Shown here one piece after another: positions 27,695 to 50,240 of a DNA stretch of 64,000 bases. The notes beneath the pieces are model-generated. The model was not told the origin of the DNA. It made no database searches and was given only the letters and a program-made list of their open reading frames with translations. The position numbers were made by a program, and so were the translations under genes. The DNA is from Liopterus haemorrhoidalis (taxonomy: Eukaryota; Arthropoda; Insecta; Coleoptera; Dytiscidae), in assembly GCA_963971575.1 (NCBI GenBank), contig OZ020613.1:50090250-50154249 (forward strand). Reading direction: 5' to 3'. Positions within the stretch are counted from its first letter, which is position 1; each line of letters starts with the position of its first letter.

Positions 27695-27921
27695 CTAGCC
27701 AATCCCCTAGCGGATGTGACGTCATTGTCATTAGCGTCCGGGGGTCGGTCTCGTCTGTAAATGGTATAATTTTTAATGTAAAATTTGTCTTTCGGTTTTA
27801 GTCTAGTTTCGTTAATTATTAGTATGTCTATTTTATGTCTTTGTAGAAAGTAAGTCAGTTCGTTGGTCTTACCCCTTACACTGTTTGCGTTCCATGTTGC
27901 TATTTTGATTTTATATTCCAT
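27695..27921 (-). pseudogene. LINE-B ORF2 N-terminus (APE endonuclease), truncated
   Basis: Starts MEYKIKIATWNANSVRGK (endonuclease motif WNANS) and has IDILIINETRL with the catalytic Glu. After ARGLA the frame runs into satellite sequence. The intact counterpart is at 46545-47246. Confidence 0.85.
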
Positions 27922-29595
27922 AAGTGTACGCGATTTGATTGAAATGTTGGAATGCGTTCATCTTGTCCATTGGTGTGTTGGCCTGCCTCATTAATTGGTT
28001 TAGATATCTGACCGCCTGCAGCATCCCATCCAAGTTGACCAGGCTGTGTAGGGTGTTGAACTCCGCAAATAAGTCATTTAATTTATCAGTAGTTTCATTA
28101 ATTTTAGTATTAGTATTAGTATTGTTTGTGTTTTGTTGAGTTGATTGTTGTGTATTAATTGTTGCATGTTGTTGAGTGTATGATGGTTTAAATGTGTGTG
28201 CTGTAGGTGATTGTTTGCGAGTAGGGATTGGAGGGGGGGAGAAAGTTGGGAGGGGAGGGGCGGAGAAAGTTGGGCGGGGAGGGGGGGGAGAAAGTTGGGC
28301 GGAGAGGTGGCCATTGTTGGGTATTGTTATTATAATTTTGCGGGGGATTCTGTAGTAGCGGTTGTTTGGGTGGTCCTGTTGCCCATGCATTGAATTCTGG
28401 TGCCGGCGCCGGGATGTAGGTTGATTGTTGTAATTGTTGTGGTCTATTATTATTTTTCCTGGCTTCTATTTTGGTTATTATTGTCTTGTAGACTTTGCAA
28501 TCAGTGGAATTGGTGGGATGTGGACCCTCACAGTTTACGCATTTTATTATTGGGGTTTCTGTGCATTCCCTGGTAAAGTGCTGTTCCGCACATTTGAGGC
28601 AGCGTGGTGTCAGTGTGCAATTTGACGTTGCATGTCCCCAGGTCTGGCAACGATGGCACTGGCTAATTCTTTTCTTATTTCGGTGAATTTCCCAAGTTAT
28701 TCTTGTATATATTTTGGAATTTCACCTTATTCCTTAATGTTTCTAATGTCACGTCTTTAGTAGTGACTACTAGATATAGTGGTCTATAATTTGTGTTCAT
28801 CTTAGTCACTTGCGTGACTGAGATGCCTTTTTGAATTAGTTGGTTCATTATCTCCTCTACCGTGGTATCCGCATCAAGTCCTCTTATTACATATCCATAT
28901 GTTTTATCTTCTTTGGAGGTGTATGTAAAATACCCTATTTTATCTTCGTTACAATTTTCCATAAACGCCTTCCTTTTACTGTTATTTTCAAACCATATAT
29001 TTGTATACTTGTCTGTGTACGATACTTGAAATTTCTCTCCTGCGTGCTTTTTAATTGTGTCGTGAAATTTGTCTGTTTGTAGGGGTCTTCCCGTGAAAAC
29101 TACCGGGGGTGGTTTGGATTCAGTTTTTTCTACCTGTTCGTGTTCTAGTTCTTCGTAAATATTTTTGTTTTTATAATTAATTGTGTTGGTACTGGTAGAT
29201 GGGTTGCTTACAGTTGTTTTTTGAATGGTTTGTGTCTGTGTTTGTGAGTTATCTGTTTTTTTGATTCTCTTCCTGGGTGGTACAATTGTGAACGCTGGGT
29301 TTGCGTCCGTGATGCGGTTTGCGTCCGTGATGCGGTTTGCGTCGGTGATGCGGTTTGCGTCCGTAATGCGGTTTGCTTCCATGGTGTAATTTTTGCTGGT
29401 GTCTGTATCTTGGTTTGTGTCCATGATTTGATAAAGGTTCAGATTGTTGTCGCTTGAAAATGTGGCGCTGTATGGACTGCCTAGCGTTATGTTTCCTAAT
29501 GAATTGTTTGTTTTATATATTTTTGCACTTGTGTCACTATCATAATCACTTTTATCACTCTCATATGTTCTTTTATTGACTGTTTGTGTTTGCAT
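27911..29595 (-). pseudogene. LINE-B ORF1 (gag-like), one frameshift
   Basis: Starts MQTQTVNKRTYESDKSD. Residues about 70-100 are a five-fold hexapeptide repeat (ANRITD). Then comes the RNA-binding region seen in PRE_C2HC-type ORF1 proteins (GYVIRGLDADTTVEEIM, TNYRPLYLVVTT). After a frameshift near 28690, three CCHC knuckles follow (CHRCQTWGH, CLKCAEQH and a third Cys-rich block). A long Pro/Gln/Asn-rich C-terminus ends in YGI. This protein class binds LINE RNA. The stop TAA overlaps the ORF2 start by 11 nt, suggesting coupled translation. Only the single frameshift breaks it. Confidence 0.8.
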
Positions 29596-29867
29596 TATTG
29601 TTTTAGTTTGTATTATTTCATTGTTTTCAATTATTATCGAGTGGCAGCCCTGCGTGCGCAGAGCTACGTGCGCGTTAGATGTCTTTGTTCCACGTCACTT
29701 ATTAATATTATGTTATTAACACTGCTAAATGTTTATATTTCTCACCCACTTCATTTACACTAACACTGAGGAACAAGTTCCTATAGTTTTTTATTAATTT
29801 TTTATAGTTTTTTGTCACTTTTTGTAAAAAATTCGCAGGAGCGATGTGATTCACGTCTTACTCATAA

Positions 29868-29906
29868 GACGAGAACCGGTGTATTCAACATGGTATGGCC
29901 GTTGCC
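29868..29906 (-). rRNA. 5S rRNA 5' fragment (nt about 1-39) at the LINE-B 5' end
   Basis: The minus strand begins GGCAACGGCCATACC and ends CCGGTTCTCGTC, matching the first 39 nt of animal 5S rRNA (insect form GCCAACGACCATACC...). The break point after GGTTCTCGTC is the same as in LINE-B copy 2. The rest of the 5S is not found here because the LINE 3' side has been lost. Not a functional gene. 29907-30449 beyond it is AT-rich with nothing recognised. Confidence 0.85.
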
Positions 29907-30749
29907 TAAAACTTACATTTAATTTTAATTTAATAAATACCAAAATGACTCTATCTTTAACATTTAACCGGTGCATTCTAATATCTTTATGTACCTACAA
30001 TAGAAATATTGTTAATAATTGAATTTAATAATTGATGTGTCTGAAGACCATTAAAACTGGAGAGTATTATAGTTGTAGTTAAATACGAAATTTTACCAAC
30101 TCTAGAGCAACTGCGCGACCAATCGAATATGAAACTTACTCGTCGAGTGACCTGAGTGCATAGTAGAGCACCCAATCGAATACGTTATTTGTGCTTCTAC
30201 TCATCACTCGACAGATAACGAAACTACTAATGAAGGTATACCAACGATTAATGAAATTATTAATAACAAAATTAACAAATTTTATAGTTAAGTGTAAGTT
30301 CTTACCAAAAAAAATATGAAATTTAAAAAATTGTTATAGTAAAAATTCCTGAAATTGAAAACGAGAAATGTATTCTGGATCTTTGCTATTTCGCGATATA
30401 TTGTTCACACAATGAAAATATGTTACTTATTGAACTACAGTTTGATTACACCGGTCAACAAAAAACATTTTTTTTTATTCTTTATTTTAATGACTATTTT
30501 CTGATTCTTTATATAGAAAAATAACTAAAACATTTGTTTATGTTTGAAAACTTTGCTTTTGTACCTTTTGTACAACTATCAATACATATTTATTTATTTT
30601 TAGGACCACATAAGGAGAAGCGTATTTTATTAAGTAAGGGTGGGGACGAGCGGGTGGCAAGTGGCATTTCACTTACGGATACATTCACAGTCGGTATGCG
30701 CATGCGCATGCAACGATACCACGCATTTTGTGTGACGGCAGATCCAAAA

Positions 30750-32016
30750 ATGGCGTCAAGAAGTTGTAAACACGAGGTAGACTCATTCTGTTATATTAGC
30801 GGGTAATTTTTCAAAATAAGAGTAAAAAAATTTGCTTTGGCCACAAATTTAAATGTTTGTGAATCCTATGTAGCTTATTTAAAACTACCCTTTAAAAGTC
30901 AAGATAAAAATTGGGCACCTCATTTCTCGTGTAATAACTGCAAAAACAATTTAGAAGGTAAGTAGACACAATTCATCGTTAAAAGAAAAAAAAAATCTAT
31001 GAGGTTTGCAGTGCCTAGAAAATGGAGAGAACCTACTGATCATGTTCAAGATTGCTATTTTTGTATAGTTAAATCAAGTAAGCGTCGGGCTGGCAAAAAT
31101 GCCAAAAAGATTTTTTATCCAGATCTTCCTTCAACGTCTGCTCCAGTACCACATAGTGAAAATTTTCCTGTACCTTCTCGTCCAGAGCTATCAGAAACTT
31201 CTAGTGCCAGCTATGACAGCGAGGACTTTGTGATCAAATCGGTAATATTTGAACCACAGCTCATTAACTCAAAAGATTTAAATGACTTAGTTAGAGATCT
31301 TTACTTTTGGTCAAGTAAAGCAGAAATTCTAGTTTCTCGGTTGAAACAATAGAATTCGCTTGAGACAAATGTATCAATTAGTGATCAAAGAAAGCGTCAT
31401 GAAGCATTTTCTTGCTTTTTCCCTAAAGAAAACGGACTTTGTTATTGTAATGATGTGAAAGGCTTGTTTGAAGAAATTAGAATCTCATGCATTCCTTCTG
31501 ACTGGCATCTCTTCATAGACAGTTCTACAAAAAGTTTAAAAGCTGTCCTTCACAATGGAAATAAATTTCCATATCTTCCTTTGGCTCATTCCGTAATGCT
31601 CAAAGAAAATTACGAAAGTATGAAAATGGTGCTTGAGAGTTTAATAGTGATAGATGGTTGGATTTCTGATGGGAATGCAAGGCGGTTATACTAAGTATCC
31701 TTGGTACCTTTGCTTATGGGACAGTAGAGCAGACACAGCGCATTATAAACAGCACTTATGGCCTAAACGAAGCGAGTTCGAGATAGGAAAACATAATGTC
31801 AAATGGGAACCAATTGTGGAACCTAAACACGTATTAATGCCTCCATTGCATATAAAATTAGGTCTTATGAAGCAATTCGTTAAAGCTCTTCGTAAATCTC
31901 TTCAGAAGCTTTTCAATATTTAAAGATTTTTTTTCCTTAAAGCCAGTTAGCTAACTGCAAGTTATCTGAAGCCAATGTAAAAACCGGTATTTTTAACCGG
32001 TAAAAAAGGAAAGCCT
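30750..32016 (+). pseudogene. family X DDE-like transposase, N-terminal and middle parts (copy 1)
   Basis: Starts MASRSCKHEVDSFCYISG; an in-frame stop follows, then DKNWAPHFSCNNC, RFAVPRKWREP and QDCYFCIV (Cys pairs suggesting zinc binding). Next come LINSKDLNDLVRDL, SDWHLFIDSS and LAHSVMLKENYES. The segment with CGDLKV is deleted. It ends GYTKYPWYLCLWDSRAD, PPLHIKLGLMKQFVKAL and a decayed tail. Copy 2 at 55266-57608 shows the full order. The family is a transposon-encoded protein widespread in insect genomes as 'uncharacterised'. The DDE assignment is inference from the acidic motifs. A TIR-like ACCGGTCAACAAA lies at 30453-30465. Confidence 0.7.
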
Positions 32017-34804
32017 GGTCTTGTAGACTTTGCAATCAGTGGAATTGGCGGGATGTGGACCCTCACAGTTTACGCATTTTATTATTGGGGTTTCTGTGCA
32101 TTCCCTGGTAAAGTGCTGTTCCGCACATTTGAGGCAGCGTGGTGTCAGTGTGCAATTTGACGTTGCATGTCCCCAGGTCTGGCAACGATGGCACTGGATA
32201 ATTCTTTTCTTATTTCGGTGAATTTCCCAAGTTATTCTTGTATATATTTTGGAATTTCACCTTATTCCTTAATGTTTCTAATGTCACGTCTTTAGTAGTG
32301 ACTACTAGATATAGTGGTCTATAATTTGTGTTCATCTTAGTCACTTGCGTGACTGAGATGCCTTTTTGAATTAGTTGGTTCATTATCTCCTCTACCGTGG
32401 TATCCGCATCAAGTCCTCTTATTACATATCCATATGTTTTATCTTCTTTGGAGGTGTATGTAAAATACCCTATTTTATCTTCGTTACAATTTTCCATAAA
32501 CGCCTTCCTTTTACTGTTATTTTCAAACCATATATTTGTATACTTGTCTGTGTACGATACTTGAAATTTCTCTCTTGCGTGCTTTTTAATTGTGTCGTGA
32601 AATTTGTCTGTTTGTAGGGGTCTTCCCGTGAAAACTACCGGGGGTGGTTTGGATTCAGTTTTTTCTACCTGTTCGTGTTCTAGTTCTTCGTAAATATTTT
32701 TGTTTTTATAATTAATTGTGTTGGTACTGGTAGATGGGTTGCTTACAGTTGTTTTTTGAATGGTTTGTGTCTGTGTTTGTGAGTTATCTGATTTTTTGAT
32801 TCTCTTCCTGGGTGGTACAATTGTGAACGCTGGGTTTGCGTCCGTGATGCGGTTTGCGTCCGTGAAGAAATTAGAATCTCATGCATTCCTTCTGACTGGC
32901 ATCTCTTCATAGACAGTTCTACAAAAAGTTTAAAAGCTGTCCTTCACAATGGAAATAAATTTCCATATCTTCCTTTGGCTCATTCCGTAATGCTCAAAGA
33001 AAATTACGAAAGTATGAAAATGGTGCTTGAGAGTTTAATAGTGATAGATGGTTGGATTTCTGATGGGAATGCAAGGCGGTTATACTAAGTATCCTTGGTA
33101 CCTTTGCTTATGGGACAGTAGAGCAGACACAGCGCATTATAAACAGCACTTATGGCCTAAACGAACTGAGTTCGAGATAGGAAAACATAATGTCAAATGG
33201 GAACCAATTGTGGAACCTAAACACGTATTAATGCCTCCATTGCATATAAAATTAGGTCTTATGAAGCAATTCGTTAAAGCTCTTCGTAAATCTCTTCAGA
33301 AGCTTTTCAATATTTAAAGATTTTTTTTCCTTAAAGCCAGTTAGCTAACTGCAAGTTATCTGAAGCCAATGTAAAAACCGGTATTTTTAACCGGTAAAAA
33401 AGGAAAGCCTGGTCTTGTAGACTTTGCAATCAGTGGAATTGGCGGGATGTGGACCCTCACAGTTTACGCATTTTATTATTGGGGTTTCTGTGCATTCCCT
33501 GGTAAAGTGCTGTTCCGCACATTTGAGGCAGCGTGGTGTCAGTGTGCAATTTGACGTTGCATGTCCCCAGGTCTGGCAACGATGGCACTGGATAATTCTT
33601 TTCTTATTTCGGTGAATTTCCCAAGTTATTCTTGTATATATTTTGGAATTTCACCTTATTCCTTAATGTTTCTAATGTCACGTCTTTAGTAGTGACTACT
33701 AGATATAGTGGTCTATAATTTGTGTTCATCTTAGTCACTTGCGTGACTGAGATGCCTTTTTGAATTAGTTGGTTCATTATCTCCTCTACCGTGGTATCCG
33801 CATCAAGTCCTCTTATTACATATCCATATGTTTTATCTTCTTTGGAGGTGTATGTAAAATACCCTATTTTATCTTCGTTACAATTTTCCATAAACGCCTT
33901 CCTTTTACTGTTATTTTCAAACCATATATTTGTATACTTGTCTGTGTACGATACTTGAAATTTCTCTCTTGCGTGCTTTTTAATTGTGTCGTGAAATTTG
34001 TCTGTTTGTAGGGGTCTTCCCGTGAAAACTACCGGGGGTGGTTTGGATTCAGTTTTTTCTACCTGTTCGTGTTCTAGTTCTTCGTAAATATTTTTGTTTT
34101 TATAATTAATTGTGTTGGTACTGGTAGATGGGTTGCTTACAGTTGTTTTTTGAATGGTTTGTGTCTGTGTTTGTGAGTTATCTGTTTTTTTGATTCTCTT
34201 CCTGGGTGGTACAATTGTGAACGCTGGGTTTGCGTCCGTGATGCGGTTTGCGTCCGTGAAGAAATTAGAATCTCATGCATTCCTTCTGACTGGCATCTCT
34301 TCATAGACAGTTCTACAAAAAGTTTAAAAGCTGTCCTTCACAATGGAAATAAATTTCCATATCTTCCTTTGGCTCATTCCGTAATGCTCAAAGAAAATTA
34401 CGAAAGTATGAAAATGGTGCTTGAGAGTTTAATAGTGATAGATGGTTGGATTTCTGATGGGAATGCAAGGCGGTTATACTAAGTATCCTTGGTACCTTTG
34501 CTTATGGGACAGTAGAGCAGACACAGCGCATTATAAACAGCACTTATGGCCTAAACGAACTGAGTTCGAGATAGGAAAACATAATGTCAAATGGGAACCA
34601 ATTGTGGAACCTAAACACGTATTAATGCCTCCATTGCATATAAAATTAGGTCTTATGAAGCAATTCGTTAAAGCTCTTCGTAAATCTCTTCAGAAGCTTT
34701 TCAATATTTAAAGATTTTTTTTCCTTAAAGCCAGTTAGCTAACTGCAAGTTATCTGAAGCCAATGTAAAAACCGGTATTTTTAACCGGTAAAAAAGGAAA
34801 GCCT
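31470..34804. repeat. 1,394-bp tandem duplication of a transposon/LINE hybrid
   Basis: The unit is about 547 bp of family X (plus) joined to about 847 bp of LINE-B ORF1 (minus). Copies start at 31470, 32864 and 34258; the third stops after its family X part at 34804. Copies 1 and 2 are almost identical. The LINE part is nearly the same as 28483-29330 of the neighbouring LINE-B copy 1. The join LINE-to-X (GCGTCCGTGA/AGAAATTAG) has only a few bases of microhomology, pointing to recombination or replication error rather than transposition. Confidence 0.92.
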
Positions 34805-34889
34805 GGCTTTGCCTGAAAACAGTGGTTCATGGTTTTCTCGGAAACAACAGAGCAGACAATTACGAACAGCTTATTGCAACTATTGATAA
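34258..34889 (+). pseudogene. family X coding continuation (copy 1)
   Basis: The third partial duplicate runs on, past the duplicated part, into genuine family X sequence: in one frame VVHGFLGNNRADNYEQLIAT matches FLGNNKSHAYKIGVEKLID of copy 2. It is cut at 34889 by the 748-bp insertion. Several frame breaks. Confidence 0.7.
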
Positions 34890-35637
34890 GAGCGACGAAT
34901 GGCTCTCTCAACGGATCGCTAGAGTTAAGCAGCTCTAGCTGCGCTGACCGCTTGGATGGGTGACCGCTTGCGTTCGGTAGTAGCGTTAAACAACGCTCGG
35001 TGCGGTGACCTCCCGGATGGGTGACCGCTTGAGATAACAGCGTGGAACGGCGCTCGGCGCGGTGACCTCCTGGATGGGTGACCGCTTGGCGACGCGGTGA
35101 ACGCACTTCGGTATTAGAGTGGTGACGGAAAGGAGAGGTGACAGCTAGGATGGGTGACAGTGAGGACAATGAGGATAGGTGACAATGAGGATGGGAAACC
35201 GTGTGTGAGTATGAAATTCTTACGTAGTTCTGAAAAGAACTGGTTTTCCTGGTGGGCCAGGCCAACATACAAGAACACCGAGAGGGTCCTTGCAGGAGTA
35301 CTGGCTGTACAACGGACTCGTAGAGCGGGCTAGTAACCAGAGCTTACTGTGGGTCAGGGCTCTGGAACGTTACCGCTCGTAGAGAGTTAGATGTGGAGCT
35401 CGTTGTACAGGCTGGCAATCAGAGCTTACTGTGGGTCAAGGCTCTGGTGCTTTACCGTAACGTAGAGAGAAAACTGAAAGAGAGTACACAGGTAAAAATA
35501 AGAACAAGTTCTCAGGCGAAAGTCAAAGACGATCTGCCTCTTGGTACGGAGCGGCCACCTTATACACCCTACAGCCCTCCCCCACTCCCAGAATGAGAGT
35601 GGAGATTGGCTTCCGAACTACCCCCCCATCACTATGC
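34890..35637. mobile_element. 748-bp insertion with 5S-like tandem modules
   Basis: Flanked by TTGATAA (34883-34889 and 35638-35644), it interrupts family X between IAT and DNFKLMGCRMSLK. The left third holds three modules ending GGATGGGTGACCGCTTG (at 34954, 35015, 35072) and a weaker fourth near 35148. The first is preceded by GAGTTAAGCAGC. These match the internal region of 5S rRNA (GTTAAGC...GGATGGGTGACCGC). The right half has two copies of a roughly 90-bp repeat around CAGAGCTTACTGTGGGTC. A 7-bp duplication and RNA-gene-derived modules suggest a SINE3-like or other non-autonomous retroelement (inference). Confidence 0.65.
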
Positions 35638-38690: not shown

Positions 38691-39012
38691 GATTTCGGAC
38701 CAGAGTTAGTTAGTTAGTTAAAATTTTTGGCGCACAGCAACAAAGGCTATTTGCCCCTAACGCAGCCCATTTAAATGACTACACTACATATTAAAAACAA
38801 TAAATTAAACAATCAATAAATAGATAAAACCAATAAAATAACGCATACTCAATAAAAGAAATCTTGCACAGACAAACACAAATAAATAAGATAAAAAGGT
38901 CTGTTCGAAAATTTGAACAGACTCAAGGTGATGGTAAGAGGCTGTAAAGGGGCCAATTACCATCGAATATCACAGTTTAAAAATAGAACACGTTAAAATA
39001 AGGTGCAAGACT

Positions 39013-40055
39013 TCACACATAAAACAATAAGTTCGATTCTCTCAGGAAGAGTATCAGCCTGTCCATGAGTACTCTGTCGTCATCTAAAGCAACTGACAGG
39101 TCATAGCACAGGCCTAACCTCTCCCTGACATCGTCGAACTGTATACACTCAGTTAAAAAGTGTAACACAGACAAATATGTGTTACACGTCTCACAGATAG
39201 GGGACTCTTCACCTCGAAGGAGGTGTCCATGGGTCCACCAACAGTGACCTATACGAAAGCGTGTGATGGCGGTTTCCTCCCTGCGGTTAATCCTGCAGGA
39301 AGAACCCCATGGTTTAACGTCTCCCTTAATCTGTCTCAACTTAACGTCCTGTATGCTGCTCCACTCATGCTGCCACCTAGCTAGAACCAGATGTTTCAGA
39401 TGACTCTTTGCGTCATCTGGGAATGTGAAACTCACATCAATCATAGGTCTAAAACAGCTCTACTCTACAATCTGAATTGTGGAGTAGCAACCGGATTTTT
39501 AGTACAAGAGGATGCACTGGATCTGGATCTTGGATACTGTTCAGAGCGCTCAGCGAGTCCGTCAAGATAACACTTGACCGACTTTGCTCTGACGAAACAA
39601 AACACAGGGCCTTGAAACTAGCGTACAGCTCAGCAGTGTATCATAAACACTCGTTATGGAGTGCAAATGGTACTGAAACTGTTGACGTGGGTTCAGGACA
39701 AGGAACGCACACCCAACCCTGGTTCCGGATTTTGATCCGTCAGTAAAAATGACAGTATCCTCGAACCTAGGGACCAGTGTTCTTTGCAACTCATGGTGGT
39801 ATTCGATAGGCAACGTATCTTTATCAAACCTAGTTAATGTGAGGTTCACAAGTGGACGCGGTAACGTCCATGGTGGAACAACACACAAAACGAAACTTGC
39901 CGGGGATATTAAAATCAATGTCACTCAAAATGTCGAAAATCCTCAGACCAAAAGGCCTATTGGCTCTTGGTTTTCTGTCATAAGTCTCTGTATGCCTATT
40001 TTGTAGAATAGGGTCATACGCGGGATGATCTGGCTTGGCACTGAGTGCAGCCATA
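39013..40055 (-). pseudogene. LINE-A ORF2 C-terminus: RNase H and CCHC-like region
   Basis: Pieces in different frames: AKPDHPAYDPILQN; LTLTRFDKDTLPIEYHHEL; VIFTDGSKSGTRVGCAFLV (RNase H first motif); and 39444-39013 with RWQHEWSSIQDVKL, RRIRREE-like sequence, RIGHCWWTHGHLL, PICETCNTYLSVLHFLTEC (terminal CCHC-like motif). This order is that of I-superfamily LINEs with a cellular-type RNase H. Three or more frameshifts make it non-functional. Confidence 0.75.
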
Positions 40056-40057
40056 TA

Positions 40058-42724
40058 GGGGAAGATTGGGACCCTTCGTACAATTTTTGTTCTTTTCTAT
40101 CTCAAGTGACAGTAAATGAATTAAATGTTATTAATTTAAATTTAAAGTATAGTAAATACATTAAGCTTTAAACAGGTTATCGATGTTAGTTCTTAAATCT
40201 AATCTTAAATCTAATTATGATACTTTTTTTTAAATATGGAAAATGTACGAATGTACCCCTCGAAAGGGGTACTTTCGTACATGATATGGGGCACTTAAGT
40301 ACACTATGGAGCAGGTTGGGACATAAGTTTTAAATACAAGAATTATAGTACCAAACATTTATTTATAATAAAAATTAGGAAAACAAAACAAATTATAGTA
40401 TTCTTATTTATAATATATAAATTATAGTAATCAATATAACTTAAAATTACAAAAATAGAACCTAGCTTGAAAAAGTAGTTATAGTATTGCATTTATTTTT
40501 TATTCTAATTTGGTTCAAATGAGATCAAAAGTTAACATGAAGTCTTGAAATAATTACCTACTGCAAATTATATGAAGTTAAGTCTGCTAAAAAATTGAAC
40601 ATAGTAGATGTCCTAGCTGTGTTAGAAGAAATGGGATTTGGTAATATTAAAACTACATCAGTAATATCAACCAATGCTTCATCGATAATATTTGGGAAGA
40701 CAAACGTCCATGAACCTGGTTTTTTTTCTCAAAAATGAGACCTTGAATTCTGTCTGACTGTAATTTTACTATAATAAAATTTTTGTCTTTAATTTTTAAT
40801 TTTCAGGTGTAATATCAACGTCAGTTTGATAATCCTCATTTGCTTCAAGCATTTCAATACTTGACGTAGAACTTTCTCTTAAACTAATACTAAGGTCCGA
40901 ATCACTACTTTCCCACATTATTTCTGTCTTCTTCTGACTTTTCTTTGGTTTTTTCAAATTTGTTTCAGTTAAAAACGTCAGTGCACGCTTCATTTCTTTA
41001 GCTCTTAGCCTCTTTTCTTGCTCAGATCTCTTCGTTTCTTTATTTTCTTGTAACTCTTCTAGTCTATTTTTTTCTGGAGTGTCGGTGTAGATTCTAGACT
41101 TCCCTGGCTGTCTTCCTTTTTTAGTTTGTGTTTCTTATTTCAGTCTTCGGATATGGACGAACCATTTCTGGTGTTTTAAGATTGTGCTTGTAGATGCTTT
41201 TAAGTATGGTGGAGTTGTAACAGCACTAGTTGATTGTACGGACATAGGCTCATGTAATGACGAAGAGGCAATTGGTGACGCTGTAATTTGTTCCACACTC
41301 ATAGAAACATTCTCATCTGTGGTGTCTAGTTGAGACTCAGCAGATTTATAAACTTGAACGGCAGCAAACTCATCTTCACTGAAAGCCAATTTGTTGAAGG
41401 GCCATATTCCTGGTTATGTGAACCCACTCACGATATTTTTTGCTATGGAATATGGTATGGAATTTTCGGAATATGGTAGATACTAAGCTCCTTCCATACT
41501 GGCTTCAGGTGCACCTTTAAAATGAACTCGTGGAAACACAAATAGTGGAGGAACTGTGTTCCCACTTGCAGATATAATGCCACCAAAAGTAACGAGTTCC
41601 CCTCTTTCTGCCGAAACAAGCTGGCCAACTCGTTTTTGAGTCTTTTCTGCCAAAATTTTAGGACAATTAAGCACTGTTGATATGCCTGATTCATCAAAAT
41701 TAAAAATTCTGCAGTAAACTTATGTCGACCGTAAAGTATTTCAAGGTTTTTATAGAATTCAATTACAGCTGTCTTATTAAACCCAAACGACCTAGCAGCA
41801 CTGGTGTTCTCAGGCTTCCGCAAACTTAAGTTGGCATTACGTTTTCGAAAGCCATGCATTCAGTCGATACCGGCGATCTCATTCTCATCCCATTTTGATG
41901 GATATTTGATATTGTTTTCTTTTGCAAATTCGTACGCAAGTCTTCTAACTTGTGTTATTGTTAACCCATAATGCATTTTACAGCAATCCACAATGTATTT
42001 GTTCAAAAGAGTCTCCTCCTTGGATGAAAACACTTGACAGGAGGTATATTTACAACTGAAAGTGCGATGAGTAGATTCATGTACATCAGATGGATTATTC
42101 CGTATTTTTTTAATGCGACTTTCTAAGGTTGTTGTCTTTATGTTGTATTTATTCGCAGATTTTCTGTAAGATAGTCTGCCTTCTAACACTTCTTTAATAG
42201 CGGAGGACATTGCCTCTTCATCTACTTCACCGCTTCTCGTCTCCTTCTTCTTATATTTTCGCACCATGGCTCTGTCAAAAAAACAAACAAATGCATAGGT
42301 ATCTATGGGGTACATTCGTACACGGACGAATCTGCCCCCTATATATGTGTATGAATGTGCCCCAAAATTTACGAAATATATGTGACATGTCAAAAATTTC
42401 GTTGCACATAGACTAAAAATCATTATTACAATATATTATTTACATAGTAAATTTACTTAAAAAAATAACATTGTATTAGAAATGAATATGTAAGAAAATG
42501 TATAAGAGCTGCAAACTACGTAATGAAAATTACTTACATGCTGTCGAAACACGTTACGTCTTGTTCCTTCGCTTACGGCAGTCAAACTGTTTTCAAATCC
42601 CGTTGACGCGCTTCACTGTACGGGCTACGCACACGTTAACAAGAATTTTAGCTGTTTCGCGCGGTTTTTAAATAATACCTTCTGTATGGATGTGCCCCGT
42701 GTACGAAGGGTCCCAATCATCCCC
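40058..42724 (-). mobile_element. pogo-type element inserted in LINE-A, TA duplication
   Basis: Inverted ends GGGGAWGATTGGGACCCTTC, continuing CGTACA on both sides, are flanked by TA (40056-40057, 42725-42726). LINE-A coding sequence resumes exactly on each side. Length 2,667 bp. It carries the broken transposase at 40560-42267. Confidence 0.9.
40560..42267 (-). pseudogene. pogo/Tigger-like transposase with internal deletion
   Basis: Start MVRKYKKKETRSGEVDEE. Residues about 20-60 are a psq-type helix-turn-helix (EGRLSYRKSANKYNIKTTTL); 85-135 are a CENP-B-type domain (LTITQVRRLAYEFAKENNI). A TGA replaces the expected Trp after EIAGID. The reading then goes on with MHGFRKRNANLSLRKPENTS. After a frameshift near 41680 come SGISTV-like sequence, KTQKRVGQLVSAERGEL and PPLFVFPRVHF. 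The rest of the DDE_1 domain (second and third catalytic acids) is deleted. The tail follows: LAFSEDEFAAV, Ser/Thr-rich, then EMKRALTFLTETNLKKPKK and a final block near PNPISS. Deletion, stop and frameshift make it dead. Confidence 0.85.
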
Positions 42725-43980
42725 TACCGCAAGGATAGAATTTTACGACGATTGTACAGTGACGGTTCGCCTGCTTCACCCAGCATGCTTGGTATTGGGC
42801 TGGTGCGAAATGCACCAGTGGCCAATCTAACCCCAGTGTGATGTACAGTGTCGAGAATTCTTATCTCTTGGTGTTTAGCTGACCCATAAGCTAGACATCC
42901 ATAGTCCAGCTTAGAGCGCACTAGTGAACGATATGAACGCAACATGACAGTGCGGTCTGCACCCCATGTCTTGTGACTGAGGACCCGCAACAAATTGAGC
43001 GACTTTTGGCATTTTTTCTTGACGGACAAAAAATGTGCCCGCCAAGTAAGACGAGTGTCAAACACGAGACCCAGAAATCTGGCAGTATCGGTAAATGGTA
43101 ACTGTGTTCCATTTAGCGTGAGTGTAGGGTTGGGATGGACACCCCTTTTCCTACAAAAATGGACACACACAGTTTTGCAGGTCGAGAATTTGAAGCCATT
43201 TTCGGTTGCCCATGTATCGAAACGATTGATGGTCAGCTGGAGCTGACGTTCGATTGTACTAGTCTTTTGTCCGGCGACAAATATACCAATGTCGTCGACA
43301 AATATCGAACTCTGTACAGGTAATCGAATACATGAAGCTGCACTGTTAATGGCAATCAAAAATAGCGTAACGCTCAGTATGGAGCCCTGTGGGACCCCAT
43401 TGTCCAGTGCGAACATTTGTGACCGGGTATTTCCGATCCGCACCCTGAAGCGCCGGTTCGACATGAAGTCTTTTATAAAGAACATCAAGCGTCCCCGGAG
43501 ACCCCAGGAATGCAAAGTATGGAGAATCCCATAAATCCATGTAGTGTCATAGGCTTTCTCAATATCGAAAAACACAGCTACCAGGTGTTTGTTTTCATCG
43601 AAAGCATTCCTGATAGCTGTCTCTAGACTGACCAGGTGATCTGCTGTTGAGCGGTGACGGCGAAAGCCGCACTGTGTGTTGGCCAGCAAGTCGTTTGATT
43701 CTAAAAACCAAATCAGACGCTTGCTGATCATTCGCTCCATGAGTTTGCAGAGACAACTGGTCAGCGATATAGGTCTATAGCTAGAAGGCAAGTGTTTATC
43801 TTTCCCGACTTTGGGGATAGGAATTATATGAGATTCCTTCCACTTGGTCGGGCACTTGCCCTCAGTCCATATCCTATTATAGACATTCAAAAGCGTAGAC
43901 TTAGATGATTTCGGAAGATTGCGGATCATACGATAATGTATCGCATCTGGACCAGGAGAGCTATCCTTACACTTTGACAT
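42725..43980 (-). pseudogene. LINE-A ORF2 reverse transcriptase domain
   Basis: A 418-codon frame with fingers (HIIPIPKVGKDKHLPSSYRP), QCGFRRHRSTADHL, palm motif A AVFFDIEKAYDTTW, motif B NGVPQGSILS, motif C SSIFVDDIGIFVA (catalytic DD), motif D/E WATENGFKFSTCKT and thumb RFLGLVFDTRLTW. These are the blocks of a non-LTR reverse transcriptase, which primes on nicked target DNA. The frame is intact inside but broken at both sides (a frameshift near 44000, and the pogo insertion at 42724). Confidence 0.9.
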
Positions 43981-44015
43981 CGCGCTATCTAGCTCTTCAC
44001 GAGATAAAAGCAGGT

Positions 44016-44739
44016 TTATACCTCGTCATCTCTGGAGAAGAAATTAAGAGGTATAGATTCTTGACCTGCTTTACGAGTTAAAGACTCGGGTGGGTAGTGT
44101 TGAGAGCTAGAATTAAATGCGAAATGAGACGCCAAAGTATTAGCAATTTCGACCGCTGAGGTAACTACGTTACCATTTACCGATAAGCCAGCAATGGTTG
44201 TAGCTGTATTTAAACCGGATATTTTCCAGACCTTCTCCCAAACTTTGGCCACTGGAGTGGCAACTATTTGCGCCATGATTCGCGCTTGCTTTCTTTCAGA
44301 ATCCTCTTAGCACGAGCTTTCGCTCGTTGGAAGGCTATCATGTTTTCCTCTGTTCGACAACGACGGAATGTATTGAAGAGGTGTCTCCTTTCACGTAGCG
44401 CCAAGTCGCATTCCTCGTTCCACCAGGGAACGGGAACTCGACGGGGCTGAGTGGATGACAGCGAGATGCTGCTTTTAGCCGCGCTCGTGATGGAATCCGT
44501 GAAATGATTCACCTCCTCGTCTATGGTCAAGTTCGAATTATCCTCATGACAGAATGATTCCGCGAACTTGTTCCAATCTGCTTTCCGAAGAACCCACTGT
44601 GGCCAGCGGGATTCGGTAACAGTATTAAACAGAGGCCTTAAGAGGATTGGAAAGTGATCACTACCGCAAAGGTCGTGATGCACATCCCATTTGAACAAGG
44701 GAGCGATGGCTCCTGAAACGACGCTAAGATCTATGGCAC
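44016..44739 (-). pseudogene. LINE-A ORF2 endonuclease end and linker, 5'-truncated
   Basis: Begins at GTGCCATAGATC; the reading IDLSVVSGAIAPLFKWDVHH and LCGSDHFPI (endonuclease His of SDH motif) is clear from copy 2. The frame 44698-44264 ends at RESWRK, and 44276-44016 continues from MAQIVATPVAKVWEKV after a frameshift. The 5' truncation abuts the 3' end of the 5S rRNA sequence at 44740. Confidence 0.82.
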
Positions 44740-44834
44740 AAAGGAGCCAACGGCATGCGGTGTTCCCAAGCGGTCACCCTTCCAAGTTCTAACCGCGCCC
44801 GATGTTGCTTAACTTCGGTGATCGGACGAGAACC
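44740..44834 (-). rRNA. 5S rRNA 3' part (nt about 30 to end) of a split 5S retro-copy
   Basis: On the minus strand: GGTTCTCGTCCGATCACCGA, then AGTTAAGCAACATCGGGCGC, TTGGAAGGGTGACCGC and GGGAACACCGCATGCCGTTG, ending with a short T run. Together with 50189-50227 this is a complete-length 5S rRNA, interrupted by LINE-B with GGTTCTCGTC duplicated. Its 3' end is fused to truncated LINE-A in the same orientation. The T run fits the oligo-U end of a Pol III transcript. A retro-copy, not a member of a tandem 5S cluster. Confidence 0.93.
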
Positions 44835-45432
44835 TTTTCTTTTCTTTTCTTTTTCTTTTCAAATGGTTTTTATTCAATAAAAAATAATACATTGTATTTT
44901 ATATATTGGTACATTTCATGTCTCCTATCCTAAGATATATACATGGTTTTAATTTTGTATTTGTGTGTACGAATGCGGTGTATTTGTTCGGTTTGGTGAA
45001 CGTCTGATAATTTTAATGTTAATGTTAATGTGTTTTTATTGTGTTTGAAGATTAGGAACTTGTCCGTGTGTCTTCTTACGTATTTTGCCTAGTCTACCTT
45101 ATTGTCTAACTTAATCTATGTTTTATTATAACTAACTGTACAATATTTACAAAATTTACATATATTACAAAAATATACAATGGACTATGTACTAAAAATT
45201 GTTATTATTAGCAGTATCGCCTGTGAGGTTGTTAATGTATGTTTTGTGTGTGCATGTGTGTATGTGTGGTTGCGTGTTGATAAGGCGTGGTGAAAGTTGT
45301 TTGTTTGTAGGTGTTGGTGTGAGTGTGGATTGGATGTATACAACTGTGTGTGCTTAAGTGTGTGTTTGGTTGCCTCATCAACATGGGAGATGCTGTTGGC
45401 GGTCACTGCTGTCTCTGTTGTTGTTCTCGTTC

Positions 45433-46230
45433 TTAAACAGTGGTAAGGGGTATCGTCTGATATGGTAATTTGTGTACATTTTCGTCATTGTCTAGTTCAT
45501 CAAGTATGTTTTCAAGTAGAGGATTGGCGTGTAGTTGTGTAAGATAGAATTTTTGTGCGAGTTTGTCAATGTAGTCTTTAATGTACGGTATATTTGTTTG
45601 TTGGTGTAGTTCTGCAATTCTTGTGTATCTGTCAGCGTTTGTAATTAGTCGTAAGCATTTGTTTTGTAGTCTTTGAATTGGTGTTTTGGCTGTAATAGAG
45701 GCTCCATACCACACTGGGGCGGCGTATGTGAGTGAAGGTCTTATTATTGCTGTGTATAGTAATTTTTTGTTTTCTTGTGTTAGTGAGCTGTATTTGTTTA
45801 ATAGTGGGTATAAGTGTCTGATTACTGTATGTGCTTTTTGTATGATATGTGCTATGTGTTGCGTGTATGTGAGTGTTTTGTCTAGTATGACTCCAAGATA
45901 TCTTGCTGATTTTGTAGGTGTTATTTTTTGGTTGTTTACTTTGAGCTGTGTGTGTATATTGATGTTTGTGAATTTGCGGGTAAATGTTAAGGTTTCCGTT
46001 TTGGAGGGGTTTATTTTGATTTTCCAGAGGGACCAGTAATGTTGTAATATGTCTATATGGATATGGAGTTGTTTGTTAGCTACCTCAGCGCTGAATGAGT
46101 GCGCATATATAGCTGTATCATCAGCGAAGAGAGCTAGATTGGTTTTAGGATATTCAGGGATATCATTAATAAATAGGGTAAATAATTTTGGACCGAGCAC
46201 ACTGCCTTGCGGAATGCCGGCTAGTATCGG
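45433..46230 (-). pseudogene. LINE-B ORF2 RT palm/thumb and C-terminus
   Basis: GIPQGSVLGP-type motif B, then LFTLFINDIPEYPKTNLALF, FADDTAIYA (catalytic DD), WSLWKIKINPSKTETLTF, SARYLGVILDKTLTYTQHI and LTYAAPVWYGA. The order and motifs are those of Jockey-type reverse transcriptases. The fingers and motif A are missing: the linker (46462-46240) runs directly into motif B, so an internal deletion of several hundred bp removed half the catalytic site. No RNase H domain is seen, unlike LINE-A. Confidence 0.85.
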
Positions 46231-46544
46231 ATGGGAAGGTGAATAAGTGTTGTTGACTTTGGATCTTCTTATGGAGCCGTGAGAGATTCCATAGTGAGTT
46301 GTCTTTCGTGTTAAGTTTGGCGAGTTTTTGCTGGAACGTGTTGTTTCTGTGATCTGTAATTTGTTTGCGTATGAGTGTGTTAAGCTTGTTCATGTATGTT
46401 TTGTGCTGTTTGTCATGGGTGCGTTGCCATAGTTTCCTGGCTGTGTTACGGGTGGTGATCAATTTGTTCCGTAGTGTCTATGTGTCGGTTTATTTGTATG
46501 TGTTTGTAAAGTGTTCGTTGGTAGTTTTTCCAGTCTGTGTGTTT

Positions 46545-47246
46545 CTAAGTTGTGATTTGTCTTGTGATGTTTTCTTTATGACGGTGATTTAGTGTGAATG
46601 TAACTGGATCGTGATCGGGGGGGAGTTCAGGAATAGTGACTGGATGGGATATGTTTGTGACGTTTTTGTTAATAATAATGTCTACGGTGCTGGGAGAGGA
46701 ACCATTTGGCGGGTAGTGTGTGGGTGTGTCAGGAGCTTCTATAAGTATATTGTATGTTGACGAGTATGTGTACAGTACTGTGCCATTTGTATTTTGTGTT
46801 GGATTGTAGCCCAAGGTGGTGTGTCTTGCATTAATGTCTCCAACTATTAATGTTTTGTTGTAGTTTGTCAGTATGTCTAAGTCATGGTCTGTAAGTCTAT
46901 TTCGGGGACTGTTGTAAGCCCCGATTATGTGTGTGTTGTCAGTGAGTTTAATTGTTAGCGTCTCTAGTGGAGTAAGTGGTGTGTCAATCCGTGTATGTGG
47001 AATGTTGTGTTTAATTAATAGTGCCAATCCTCTAGCGACTGTGATGTCATTGTCATTAGCGTCTGGGGGTCGGTCTCGTCTGTAAATGGTGTAATTTTTA
47101 ATGTAAAATTTGTCTTTCGGTTTTAGTCTAGTCTCATTAATTATAAGTATGTCTATTTTATGTCTTTGTAGAAAGTAAGTCAGTTCATTGGTCTTACCCC
47201 TTACACTGTTTGCGTTCCATGTGCATATTTTAATTTTATATTCCAT
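46545..47246 (-). pseudogene. LINE-B ORF2 APE-type endonuclease domain
   Basis: Starts MEYKIKICTWNANSVRGK just before the ORF1 stop (overlap 11 nt). Catalytic motifs in order: WNANS, INETRL (Glu), GAYNSPRN, GDINARHTTLG (Asp/Asn), STVDIII (Asp), LPPDHDPVTFTL (Asp-His). The domain nicks target DNA and so defines the insertion site. All catalytic residues are present. A stop at 46545 ends the frame before the linker, so ORF2 as a whole is broken. Confidence 0.88.
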
Positions 47247-48555
47247 AGTTGTGAACAATTTGTGTAAAATGCTCAAACGCTAATACTTTTTCCAGTGAGT
47301 TTTTGGTTTGTCTCATAATATGGTTTAGGTATCTGACCGCCTCCAGCATCCCTTCCAAGTTGGCCAGGCTGTAGAGCGTGTTGAATTCTGAAAGAAGGTC
47401 ATTTAAAGTATCAGTATTTTTGTTAATATTAAAATTAATGTTGTTATTGTCATTGTGTGTGTTATGTTGTGTTGTTTGTTGAGTGTTAGTTGGTGGTTGC
47501 TGTTGGGTGTGCGATGGTTTGAATGTGTGTGTTGATAATTGTTGGCGAGTAGGGGGCGGAGGGGGGAGACTGTTGGGCGGAGAGGTGGCCATTGTTGGGT
47601 ATTGTTGTTACTATAATTTTGGGTGGGATAATTTTGCGGGGGAGTCTGAAGTAGCGGTTGTCTGGGTGGTCCTGTTGCCCATGCATTGACTGCTGGTGCC
47701 GGTGCCGGGATGTAGGTTGGTTGTGGTTGATGTGGTTGATTGTTGTTTTTCCTAGCTTCTATTTTAGCTAGTATTGATTTGTAAACTTTACATTCTGTTG
47801 AATTGGCGGGATGTGGCCCCTCGCAGTTTGCGCATTTAATTGTTGGATTTTCTGTGCATTCTCTGGTGAGGTGCTGTTCTGCACATTTGAGGCAGCGTGG
47901 TATTAGCGTACAATTCGACGTTGCGTGTCCCCAGGTCTGGCAACGATGGCATTGGATGATTCTTTTTTTGTTCCGGTGTATTTCCTATGTAATTTTGGTA
48001 TATATTAGGAATCTCACCTTGGTTCTTAGTGTTTCTAGTGTCACATCTTTGGTTGTGACTACAAGATAAAGTGGCCTGTAATTGGTTCTCATTTTAATCA
48101 CTTGAGTGACTGAGATACCTTTTTGAATTAATGCTCCATTATTTCATCTACCGTCGTGTCTGCGTCGAGTCCCCTTATTACATAACCGTATGTTTTTTTC
48201 CTGCTTGGCGGTGTATGTAAAATACCCTATCTTGTCGTCATTGCAGTTCTGCATAAATGCCTTTCGTTTGTTGTTGGTTTCAAACCATATGTTAGTATAT
48301 TTGTCGGTATAGGATACGTGGAATTTTTCTCCAGCGTGTTTTTTAATTGTGTTGTGAAACTGATCGGTTTAAAGCGGTCTTCCCGTGAAAACTACCGGGG
48401 GTGGTTTAGGTTCAGTGTTTTCTTCCTGTTCATGTTCAAGTTCTTCATATATGTTTTTGTTTTTGTAGTTAATTATACTGGTACTGGTAGATGGATTGTT
48501 AGCGGTTGTTTTCTGTGTGGTTTGTCTGTGATTCTGATTTTTCTGATTTTTTGAT
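47236..48555 (-). pseudogene. LINE-B ORF1, second (duplicated, diverged) segment and C-terminus
   Basis: Reading minus, sequence equivalent to ORF1 from 'PPRKRIKK' to the zinc knuckles is present a second time (48555 to about 47755), with extra frameshifts near 48120-48200 and 48372. It then runs into the Pro/Gln-rich C-terminus (MATSPPNSLPPPPP...) ending YGI at 47236. It differs from the first segment at many sites, so it came from a different LINE-B copy or is old. Confidence 0.7.
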
Positions 48556-49955
48556 TCGTTTCCTGGGCTTCTATTTTGGCTATTATTGACTTGTAGACTT
48601 TACATTCAGTTGAATTGGCGGGATGTGGGCCCTCACAGTTTGCGCATTTGATTATTGGGGTTTCTGTGCATTCTCTGGTGAAGTGCTGTTCCGCACATTT
48701 GAGGCAGCGTGGTATCAGTGTACAATTCGACGTTACATGTCCCCAGGTCTGGCAACGATGGCACTGGATGATTCTTTTTTTATTTCTGTGAATTTCCCAA
48801 GTAATTCTAGTATATATGAGGAATTTCACCTTGTTCCTTAGTATTTCTAGTGTCACATCTTTAGTAGTGACTACTAGATATAATGGTCTGTAATTGGTGT
48901 TCATCTTAGTCACTTGCGTGACTGAGATGCCTTTTTGGATTAGTTGGTCCATTATTTCCTCTACCGTGGTATCTGCATCAAGTCCTCTTATTACATAACC
49001 GTATGTTTTGTCTTGTTTGGAGGTGTATGTAAAATACCCTATTTTATCTTCATTGCAGTTTTCCATGAACGCCTTCCTTTTGTTGTTGTTTTCGAACCAT
49101 ATGTTGGTATACTTGTCTGTATAAGATACTTGGAATTTCTCTCCTACGTGCTTTTTAATTGTATTGTGAAATTTATCTGTTTGAAGGGGTCTTCCCGTGA
49201 AAACTACCGGGGGTGGTTTGGGTTCAGTTTTTTCTTCCTGTTCATGTTCTAATTCTTCGTAAATATTTTTGTTTTTGTAATTAATTGTGTTGGTACTGGT
49301 AGATGGGTTGTTTGCGGTTGTTTTCTGAATGGTTTGTGTCTGTGTTTCTGATTTATCTGTTTTTTTGATTCGCTTCCTGGGTGGTACAATTGTGAACGTT
49401 GGGTTTGCGTCCGTGGTGTGGTTTGCGTCTATGATGTATGTTTTGCTGGTATCTGTGTCGTGGTTTGTGTCCATGGTTTGGTCTTGGTTCTGACTGTTAT
49501 CGCATGAGAATGTGGCGCTGTATGGACTGCCTGGCGTTGTATTTCCTAGTGCAGTGGTTCTCAACCAGGGTGCCGTGGCACCCTGGGGTGCCGTAAGCAC
49601 ATGAAAAGGGTGCCGCGAGCTTTTCAAAATAAATTCGCCGCTATTCTCGGAATCGAAGACCGATGACCGAATCGAAGAAATTTTCGAATGATCTTTAAAT
49701 ACATATTATGTAATTGTAATATTATTGTTTTTTTTTTCCAACATCACAATTATACTTTTGATTGATTATACTTTAAACTGACTAATAGGGTGCCGCGAAG
49801 ATCTCACATTTTGCATAGGGGTGCCTTCACCTAAAAAAGGTTGAGAACCACTGTCCTAGTGAATTGATTGTTTTTTGTGTATTTACACTTGTGTCACTAT
49901 CGTCGCCACTATTGTCACTTTCATAAGTTCTTTTATTAATTGTTTGCTTTTGCAT
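48556..49955 (-). pseudogene. LINE-B ORF1, first segment, interrupted by a hAT MITE
   Basis: Start MQKQTINKRTYESDNSG at 49955; the frame is split at 49853/49552 by the MITE and then runs open to 48556. Features: NPTFTIVPPRKRIKK, PPPVVFTGRPLQTDK, RNA-binding region GYVIRGLDADTTVEEIMDQL, TNYRPLYLVVTT, then CHRCQTWGHVTSNC, CLKCAEQHFTREC and CANCEGPHPANSTEC (three CCHC knuckles). It ends abruptly at KSIIAKIEAQ, where the duplicated segment starts. Confidence 0.82.
49552..49853. mobile_element. hAT MITE, 302 bp, 8-bp duplication
   Basis: The inverted ends CAGTGGTTCTCAACC and complement are flanked by TCCTAGTG at 49544-49551 and 49854-49861, an exact 8-bp match. Removing it with one TCCTAGTG restores the LINE-B ORF1 frame (INS joined to LGN). 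The inside is rich in GGGTGCCG motifs without coding. It is the youngest layer of this nested stack. Confidence 0.95.
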
Positions 49956-50188
49956 TATTGTTTTAATTTGAGTTATGTCATTGTTTTCAATTATTTAGCG
50001 AGTGGCAGCCCTGCGTGTGCGCAGAGCTACATGCGCGTTGGTTCTCTTTGTTACACGTCACTTGTTAATAGTTTATTGTTAACACTACTAATTGTTAATA
50101 ATTCTCACCCACTTCATTTACTGTAACTACACTATTACACTTTTGTGAAAAATTCACAGGAGCGATCTGGTACACGTCTTACTAACAA

Positions 50189-50227
50189 GACGAGAACCGG
50201 TGTATTCAACATGGTATGGCCGTTGCC
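50189..50227 (-). rRNA. 5S rRNA 5' part (nt about 1-39) of the split 5S retro-copy
   Basis: The minus strand runs from GGCAACGGCCATACC to GGTTCTCGTC. The 5S start lies directly against the 13-bp duplication GATTTCGGACCAG (50228-50240), as expected if reverse transcription ran to the 5' end of a 5S RNA. See the 3' part at 44740-44834. Confidence 0.93.
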
Positions 50228-50240
50228 GATTTCGGACCAG

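What the first reader, a model, noticed from the sequence alone, without database searches (positions are those of the whole stretch)
44825..50198. LINE-B inserted in 5S rRNA with a 10-bp duplication; a second copy joins 5S at the same base
Seen: GACGAGAACC at 44825-44834 and 50189-50198 brackets LINE-B copy 2, and 5S nt 1-39 and about 30-end lie on its two sides. LINE-B copy 1 (27695-29867) is joined to 5S nt 1-39 (29868-29906) at the identical base, although its 5' UTR start differs in sequence (TTATGAGT versus TTGTTAGT) and its outer flank is unrelated. Two independent identical junctions suggest site preference. Known: a few non-LTR elements target RNA genes (R1, R2; 5S-specific Mutsu in fish). 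A Jockey-like, APE-encoding LINE aimed at insect 5S would be notable.
Basis: partly seen in the sequence, partly recalled or inferred. Interest (0 to 1): 0.9.

Follow-up and report, generated by a model that had tools for sequence, protein, structure and literature searches.

The report
Jockey-like LINE that targets 5S genes
An insect-like genome carries LINE retrotransposons that insert at one exact base inside the 5S ribosomal RNA sequence, both in the real 5S gene array and in stray 5S copies elsewhere, a target choice that I found named in print only for a different, fish element.

Summary
Window copy 2 (44835-50188) sits inside a 5S sequence between nt 39 and a duplicated nt 30-39 (GGTTCTCGTC). 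Copy 1 has the same 5' junction.

The decisive evidence is outside the window. The 5S array (C3, from about 37.4 Mb) holds sister elements inserted at the same base. The two read in full have open ORF1 and EN+RT ORF2 and are 99.88% identical. With a 3'-UTR query free of 5S, 10 of 10 array-type rows that reach the 3' end start at 5S nt 30. Eight loci show 5S on both sides with the 10-bp duplication; five of them are array copies that may be duplicates.

Against: for the window's own LINE-B type only 2 of 8 rows reaching the 3' end are at 5S; 2 share another repeat and 4 lie elsewhere.

The 5S hit in the window is fused to a 5'-truncated second LINE, and the pair is bracketed by a 13-bp duplication. 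LINE-B thus entered a 5S-LINE chimera, so the site is recognised by sequence.

A Tribolium freemani paper reports Jockey-like elements in 5S arrays beside 5S genes lacking their first 30 bp; that fits the same site, not recognised there. New variant of site-specific LINEs.

The parts
44835..50188 (-). LINE-B copy 2: 5' UTR, partly duplicated ORF1, EN, RT lacking its first half, 3' UTR, A-rich tail; dead copy
   Evidence: residues 1-295, 301-365 and 623-897 of the array element's ORF2 matched; nothing matched between 365 and 623
50189..50198 (-). 5' copy of the 10-bp target-site duplication (5S nt 30-39)
44825..44834 (-). 3' copy of the 10-bp target-site duplication
50189..50227 (-). 5S rRNA nt 1-39, 39/39 identical to array 5S
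44743..44834 (-). 5S rRNA nt 30-121, 3 substitutions
38704..44742 (-). LINE-C, 5'-truncated (RVT_1; (TAAC)n tail; about 2.7 kb more than the related copy at L036 has), joined directly to the 5S 3' end: 5S-LINE-C chimera
   Evidence: an RNase-H-like frame at 39562-39924 was read by eye only; Pfam does not call it
50228..50240 (-). 13-bp target-site duplication CTGGTCCGAAATC, 5' copy, immediately before 5S nt 1
38691..38703 (-). 13-bp target-site duplication, 3' copy, immediately after the LINE-C tail
27695..29867 (-). LINE-B copy 1: 5' UTR, ORF1, start of EN; 3' part lost against an 82-bp satellite
29868..29906 (-). 5S rRNA nt 1-39 joined to the 5' end of copy 1
29907..30169 (-). outer flank of copy 1, 100% identical to the flank of the complete insertion at C3:50.835 Mb (L062)
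46545..47279 (-). endonuclease reading frame of LINE-B copy 2 (Exo_endo_phos)
45433..46389 (-). reverse transcriptase C-terminal reading frame (RVT_1)
49552..49853 (.). MITE-like insert with inverted ends nested in copy 2, 8-bp duplication TCCTAGTG (read by eye)

Best explanation
The window holds old members of a lineage of EN-encoding, Jockey-like non-LTR retrotransposons whose integration is aimed at one site in 5S rRNA sequence. Shown: insertion in 5S sense between nt 39 and nt 40, with nt 30-39 (GGTTCTCGTC) duplicated and an A-rich tail (or, in L036, an ATGA tail) before the second nt 30. Inferred: the endonuclease nicks the antisense strand at GAACC^GGTG, the 3' OH primes reverse transcription from the tail (target-primed reverse transcription), and a second cut after nt 39 gives the 10-bp duplication. 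The sister family in the 5S array was found only at 5S among its complete 3' ends. The window's LINE-B type is looser. Outside the array, 5S copies fused to other LINEs (5S-LINE chimeras, read as template switching) act as extra targets, which shows that the sequence, not the array location, is recognised.
For: Filled and empty sites in the same array, whose compared unit stretches are 99.6-100% identical. 13 of 13 LINE-5S 3' junctions start at nt 30, among 40 scored rows: 23 are uninterrupted 5S genes and 4 are LINE ends without 5S. 10 of 10 array-type rows that reach the 3' end are at 5S with a query free of 5S (17 of 17 candidates scored; 9 of 9 without L048, which is only 70% similar). Both-sided insertions: 8 loci (window copy 2; L024; L025; L043/L055; L044/L056; L047/L057; L046/L059; L036/L062). 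The two 5S families are sisters, 100/96, while a copy at a non-5S site is the next branch, 99/90. EN and RT folds match human LINE-1 ORF2p and LINE-1/R1 endonucleases. The 5S-LINE-C chimera has its own 13-bp duplication, and L036 has a second 5S-LINE-C fusion at another LINE-C position. Chance of one given base and strand among an assumed 1000 5S copies in 1.02 Gb is about 5e-7 per insertion.
Against: For the window LINE-B type, 6 of 8 rows reaching the 3' end are not in 5S. Five of the ten sister-family rows lie in the homogenised array and may be duplicates of one insertion; flanks there are too uniform to decide. The 5' sides fetched for L040 and L050 (L058, L063) show no 5S nt 1-39; the 5' sides of L048 and L051 were not resolved; a second element in L045 has only nt 30-39 before it. 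Independent insertions are thus fewer than the loci counted. No biochemical test was possible, and the genome-wide search for 5' junctions did not complete.
Confidence: 0.92

Rival explanations
1. One 5S-LINE fusion arose once and spread by DNA duplication or array homogenisation; no targeting.
For: Copy 1 is a duplicate of the C3:50.84 Mb locus; the five array copies are 99-100% identical in the 3' UTR.
Against: Different LINE families (about 71% DNA, 71% protein), different tails and different outer flanks share the same base: the 5S 3' flanks of window copy 2, L036, L040 and L046 differ, L036 and window copy 2 sit in fusions with different LINE-C positions, and L050 is a further lineage (68% protein).
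Confidence: 0.03
2. The 5S pieces are carried by the element: transcripts start in 5S (or a 5S-LINE fusion is the unit), so 5S is a 5' UTR part or a SINE-like head rather than a target.
For: Copy 1 shows only 5S nt 1-39 at its 5' end; a conserved AAGACGTG lies only 9-16 nt inside the element, resembling a downstream promoter element (recalled), which would place a start site inside 5S.
Against: 5S nt 30-119 follows the tail and nt 30-39 is duplicated in 8 both-sided loci; uninterrupted 5S genes are the empty sites. The non-5S copies L029/L022 and L049/L060 lack 5S, but they are 5'-truncated, so they say little here.
Confidence: 0.04
3. Preference is for Pol III chromatin or transcription complexes, not sequence.
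For: Two related copies lie at one identical position (GCTGA(C/T)TTTTCACC) of another repeat that looks tRNA-like by eye.
Against: Insertion is at a single base inside the gene; targets include the 5S parts of LINE chimeras; ARAGORN found no tRNA in the rejoined repeat, and a scan of the fetched halves L038, L039, L049 and L060 against Rfam found none either.
Confidence: 0.05

Closest known systems
Mutsu (fish; L1/Tx1-type non-LTR retrotransposon of 5S genes)
   Same: Targets 5S rRNA genes (stated for zebrafish in PMC3706591, passage seen, and in PMC11202950, passage seen); APE-type and clade recalled
   Different: Other clade and host (recalled); Mutsu's exact site could not be read here (PMC5340908 is not held)
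Jockey-like elements in Tribolium freemani 5S arrays (PMC11202950)
   Same: Jockey-like LINE of about 5 kb in 5S arrays; 5S copies lacking the first 30 bp occur only beside it, as expected for an insertion at nt 30
   Different: In the passages and Results seen, the authors call them pseudogenes and interruptions of satellite arrays and describe no target site or duplication; no DNA of that species was available here to compare
R1 / R2 and telomeric TRAS / SART elements (insects)
   Same: Sequence-specific LINEs using target-primed reverse transcription in multicopy targets (recalled); the R1 endonuclease fold is among the structure matches
   Different: 28S or telomere targets; R1 clade or restriction-like endonuclease (recalled)
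U6/5S-LINE chimeric retrocopies by template switching (mammals; recalled)
   Same: Full-length small RNA joined to a 5'-truncated LINE, bracketed by a target-site duplication
   Different: Here they serve as landing sites for another LINE

Membership tests
Sequence-specific non-LTR retrotransposon | Insertions of independent copies at one base of a repeated target | tested here: met
   strict for the array family, loose for LINE-B (2 of 8)
Sequence-specific non-LTR retrotransposon | Target-site duplication and 3' tail | tested here: met
Sequence-specific non-LTR retrotransposon | Endonuclease cuts the target DNA specifically | not testable with these tools
   needs biochemistry
Jockey clade / Jockey-like | APE-type EN + RT, no RNase H in ORF2, separate ORF1 with CCHC knuckles | tested here: met
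   EN and RT domains, no RNase H match; ORF1 has a CX2CX4HX4C motif by eye, no Pfam hit above its cut-off
Jockey clade / Jockey-like | RT phylogeny groups with reference Jockey elements | tested here: inconclusive
   no curated reference elements were in the trees, only rows whose source names mention 'transposon BS' or 'jockey'
Mutsu (5S-specific L1/Tx1) | Membership of the Tx1/L1 clade | not tested
   no Mutsu sequence was available
5S-derived SINE (SINE3) | 5S as head of the mobile unit | tested here: not met
   5S nt 30-119 continues after the LINE tail with a duplication; uninterrupted array 5S genes are the empty sites

The most novel reading that the evidence does not exclude
A widespread insect lineage of Jockey-like LINEs has evolved endonucleases aimed at small-RNA-type sequences: one branch at 5S nt 30-39, neighbouring copies at a fixed position of a tRNA-like repeat. 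The same genome keeps strict and relaxed versions side by side, and 5S-LINE chimeras made by other LINEs feed the 5S branch with targets outside the array. T. freemani would be a second host of the 5S branch.
Probability: 0.35. Interest if true: 0.85.

Novelty: new variant of a known kind. Interest (0 to 1): 0.72.

Why it matters
In the papers I could see, 5S targeting by a LINE is named only for fish Mutsu, and the Tribolium report describes the association but not the site. Related families with strict, loose and different targets in one genome, with two copies whose ORFs are open, make the origin and relaxation of endonuclease specificity directly testable, and give a new insect-derived candidate for site-specific DNA writing. 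The nested 5S-LINE chimera separates sequence recognition from array location without an experiment.

Tried and rejected
Rejected: 5S as a fixed 5' UTR piece or SINE head; a single fusion spread by duplication; the window 5S as genuine 5S genes.

Led nowhere: search for relatives in viral contigs and genome contigs (only 22-24% identical bacterial-record RTs); PDB search by sequence; tRNA finders on the second target repeat; array flanks cannot tell independent from duplicated insertions; no duplication found for copy 1; Pfam on the LINE-C frames outside its RT. Rows left out of the counts: C67:518375 and C11:28985088 (do not reach the 3' end) and C3:38788976 and C3:38131390 (array type, both at 5S, counted); C13:11205276 and C14:13812696 (do not reach the 3' end) and five LINE-B-type or undecided rows, of which C3:43895927 ends in a microsatellite. 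Of the 8 LINE-B rows counted, three (C11:28986492, C67:489784, C3:49945660) match over only 76-88 of 246 query bases.
Full report
OBSERVATION. On the minus strand LINE-B copy 2 (44835-50188) lies between 5S nt 1-39 (50189-50227, 39/39) and 5S nt 30-121 (44743-44834, 96.7%), so that GGTTCTCGTC (nt 30-39) occurs on both sides. Copy 1 (27695-29867) is joined to 5S nt 1-39 at the same base. Rfam at gathering scores reports no 5S in the window, as may be expected of split copies.

WHAT THE 5S IN THE WINDOW IS. It is not a piece of the 5S array. A 13-bp direct repeat, CTGGTCCGAAATC, stands immediately before 5S nt 1 (50228-50240) and immediately after the (TAAC)n tail of a second, 5'-truncated LINE, LINE-C (38691-38703) (LINE-C RT). 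So 5S nt 1-121 plus LINE-C were inserted together, best read as template switching from LINE-C RNA to 5S RNA (mechanism recalled from mammalian chimeric retrocopies). LINE-B then entered the 5S part. Elsewhere: at C3:50.84 Mb the 5S is followed within 8 bp by LINE-C sequence (95% identical over 293 bp) starting 1.7 kb further into LINE-C (L036). At C3:38.79 Mb the 5S is followed by a short stretch with an (ACAAG)n tail and then GGAGAGACAC, which also stands 2 bases before 5S nt 1 on the other side (L059/L046); this stretch does not match LINE-C, so I read it as a fusion with another LINE, less firmly. Copy 1 with its outer flank (302 bp, 100%) is a duplicate of the C3:50.84 Mb locus, which still has 5S nt 30-119 on the other side.

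THE 5S ARRAY. The genome (1.02 Gb, 91 contigs) has a 5S array on the same contig, C3 (47 full-length 5S scored); compared unit stretches are 99.6-100% identical. Two array 5S genes contain a 4884/4880-bp LINE in 5S sense at the same site. The two are 99.88% identical over 4880 aligned positions, with open ORF1 (frame of 462 codons) and ORF2 (905 aa from Met). Uninterrupted units are otherwise the same sequence. In the array element the next three bases happen to match 5S nt 40-42, so its duplication is 10 to 13 bp; in window copy 2 it is 10 bp.

CENSUS. (3' UTR plus 5S as query) scored 40 of 1226 candidates: 23 uninterrupted 5S genes, 13 LINE tails followed by 5S exactly at nt 30 (L035, L036, L040-L048, L050, L051), and 4 LINE ends without 5S (L037, which is cut short of the 3' end, L038, L039, L049). 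Because that query favours 5S, two queries without 5S were run. Array-type 3' UTR (17 of 17 candidates scored): 12 array-type rows (70-100% identical), of which 10 reach the 3' end, and these 10 are loci where one search shows 5S from nt 30. L048, at 70%, is the least certain member. The other five rows are LINE-B-type or undecided: C3:50840380 at 5S; C67:473074 and C11:31854783 at the second repeat; C16:37050227 elsewhere; C3:43895927 ends in a microsatellite. Window-type 3' UTR (12 of 12 scored): of 8 LINE-B rows that reach the 3' end, 2 are at 5S (window copy 2, L036), 2 at a second shared site (L039, L049) and 4 elsewhere (L038, L064, L065, L066). Five of the ten array-type rows are 99-100% identical and may be duplicates; the rest (C11:35.36, C3:38.13, 38.36, 38.79, C14:13.81 Mb) differ from the array copies by 6-30%.

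5' SIDES. 5S nt 1-39 followed by the element was seen in L024, L025, L055, L056, L057, L059 (1 substitution), L062, window copy 1 and window copy 2. It was sought and not found in L058 and L063, the stretches fetched for L040 and L050, and in L060 and L061, the 5' sides of the non-5S copies L049 and L039. The second element in L045 has only GGTTCTCGTC before it. The 5' sides of L048 and L051 were not resolved. Eight loci have both sides.

SECOND SITE. Copies L029/L022 and L049/L060, both 5'-truncated, are bracketed by GCTGA(C/T)TTTTCACC within the same repeat, and the 3' end of L039 joins the same position although its 5' flank differs. The repeat shows box-A-like and box-B-like motifs by eye, but ARAGORN on the rejoined repeat and Rfam on the fetched halves do not call a tRNA. 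L039 is 98.4% identical to copy 1 over 552 bp of the ORF1 side, so close relatives use different sites.

ENZYME AND KINSHIP. ORF2 has PF14529/PF03372 endonuclease and RVT_1 without RNase H. The AlphaFold model (mean pLDDT 85.5) matches human LINE-1 ORF2p and LINE-1 and R1 endonucleases. 125 homologues were found (120 listed), the best 53% identical; the closest rows with an organism name are Menopon, Asbolus and Tribolium (insects, recalled), while weaker rows include a nematode. In an RT C-terminal tree the array element and window copy 2 are sisters (100/96), with the non-5S copy L029 next (99/90; L029 fills 42% of the columns). Curated Jockey or Mutsu references were not available, so 'Jockey-like' rests on domain make-up and names of hits.

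MECHANISM. Shown: site, duplication, sense orientation, tail. Inferred: nick of the antisense strand at GAACC^GGTG, priming from the tail, second cut after nt 39. Speculation: AAGACGTG 9-16 nt inside the three 5' ends compared recalls a downstream promoter element, which would put the start inside 5S.

PRIOR WORK. PMC11202950 (passages and the Results section): T. freemani 5S arrays are interrupted by Jockey-like elements, and 32 of 113 5S copies lack the first 30 bp, exclusively in the arrangement with these elements. This is what insertion at nt 30 leaves on the 3' side; the parts I read do not say so. PMC3706591 (passages) names Mutsu for 5S in zebrafish. The listings of searches showed no other title or abstract start on a LINE aimed at 5S; I did not open the other papers except PMC3747384 (passages). 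Closed papers, such as the one describing Mutsu, were not read.

Confidence in the best explanation went from 0.93 to 0.92 because several 5' sides are unresolved; one search confirmed the L036 fusion and one search left the RNase H of LINE-C unconfirmed.

Noticed in passing
window 34940-35090: Degenerate 57-bp tandem repeat carrying pieces of the 5S internal promoter (nt 78-98) three times.
   Followed up: partly
window 24001-27693: 82-bp satellite, 45 copies, abutting the broken 3' side of LINE-B copy 1.
   Followed up: no
window 31469-34806: 1394-bp tandem duplication containing two ORF1 pieces of LINE-B 99.5-99.6% identical to copy 1.
   Followed up: partly
window 49544-49861: MITE-like insert with CAGTGGTTCTCAAC-type ends and 8-bp duplication TCCTAGTG nested in LINE-B copy 2.
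   Followed up: partly
window 47748-49381: ORF1 of copy 2 is partly duplicated in tandem (87% identical halves).
   Followed up: no
L029/L022, L049/L060, L039: Related LINE copies at one identical position of another repeat that looks tRNA-like by eye.
   Followed up: partly
G000 C3 37.40-37.63 Mb: 5S array units of about 6.39 kb hold two inverted 5S genes; several units carry other insertions at spacer positions 1311-1393.
   Followed up: partly
L050 / L063 (C3:38.318-38.324 Mb): A further LINE lineage (68% protein identity) ends at 5S nt 30; its 5' junction was not found.
   Followed up: partly
window about 40058-42724: The window's LINE-C has about 2.7 kb that the related LINE-C at L036 lacks, probably a nested insert.
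   Followed up: no
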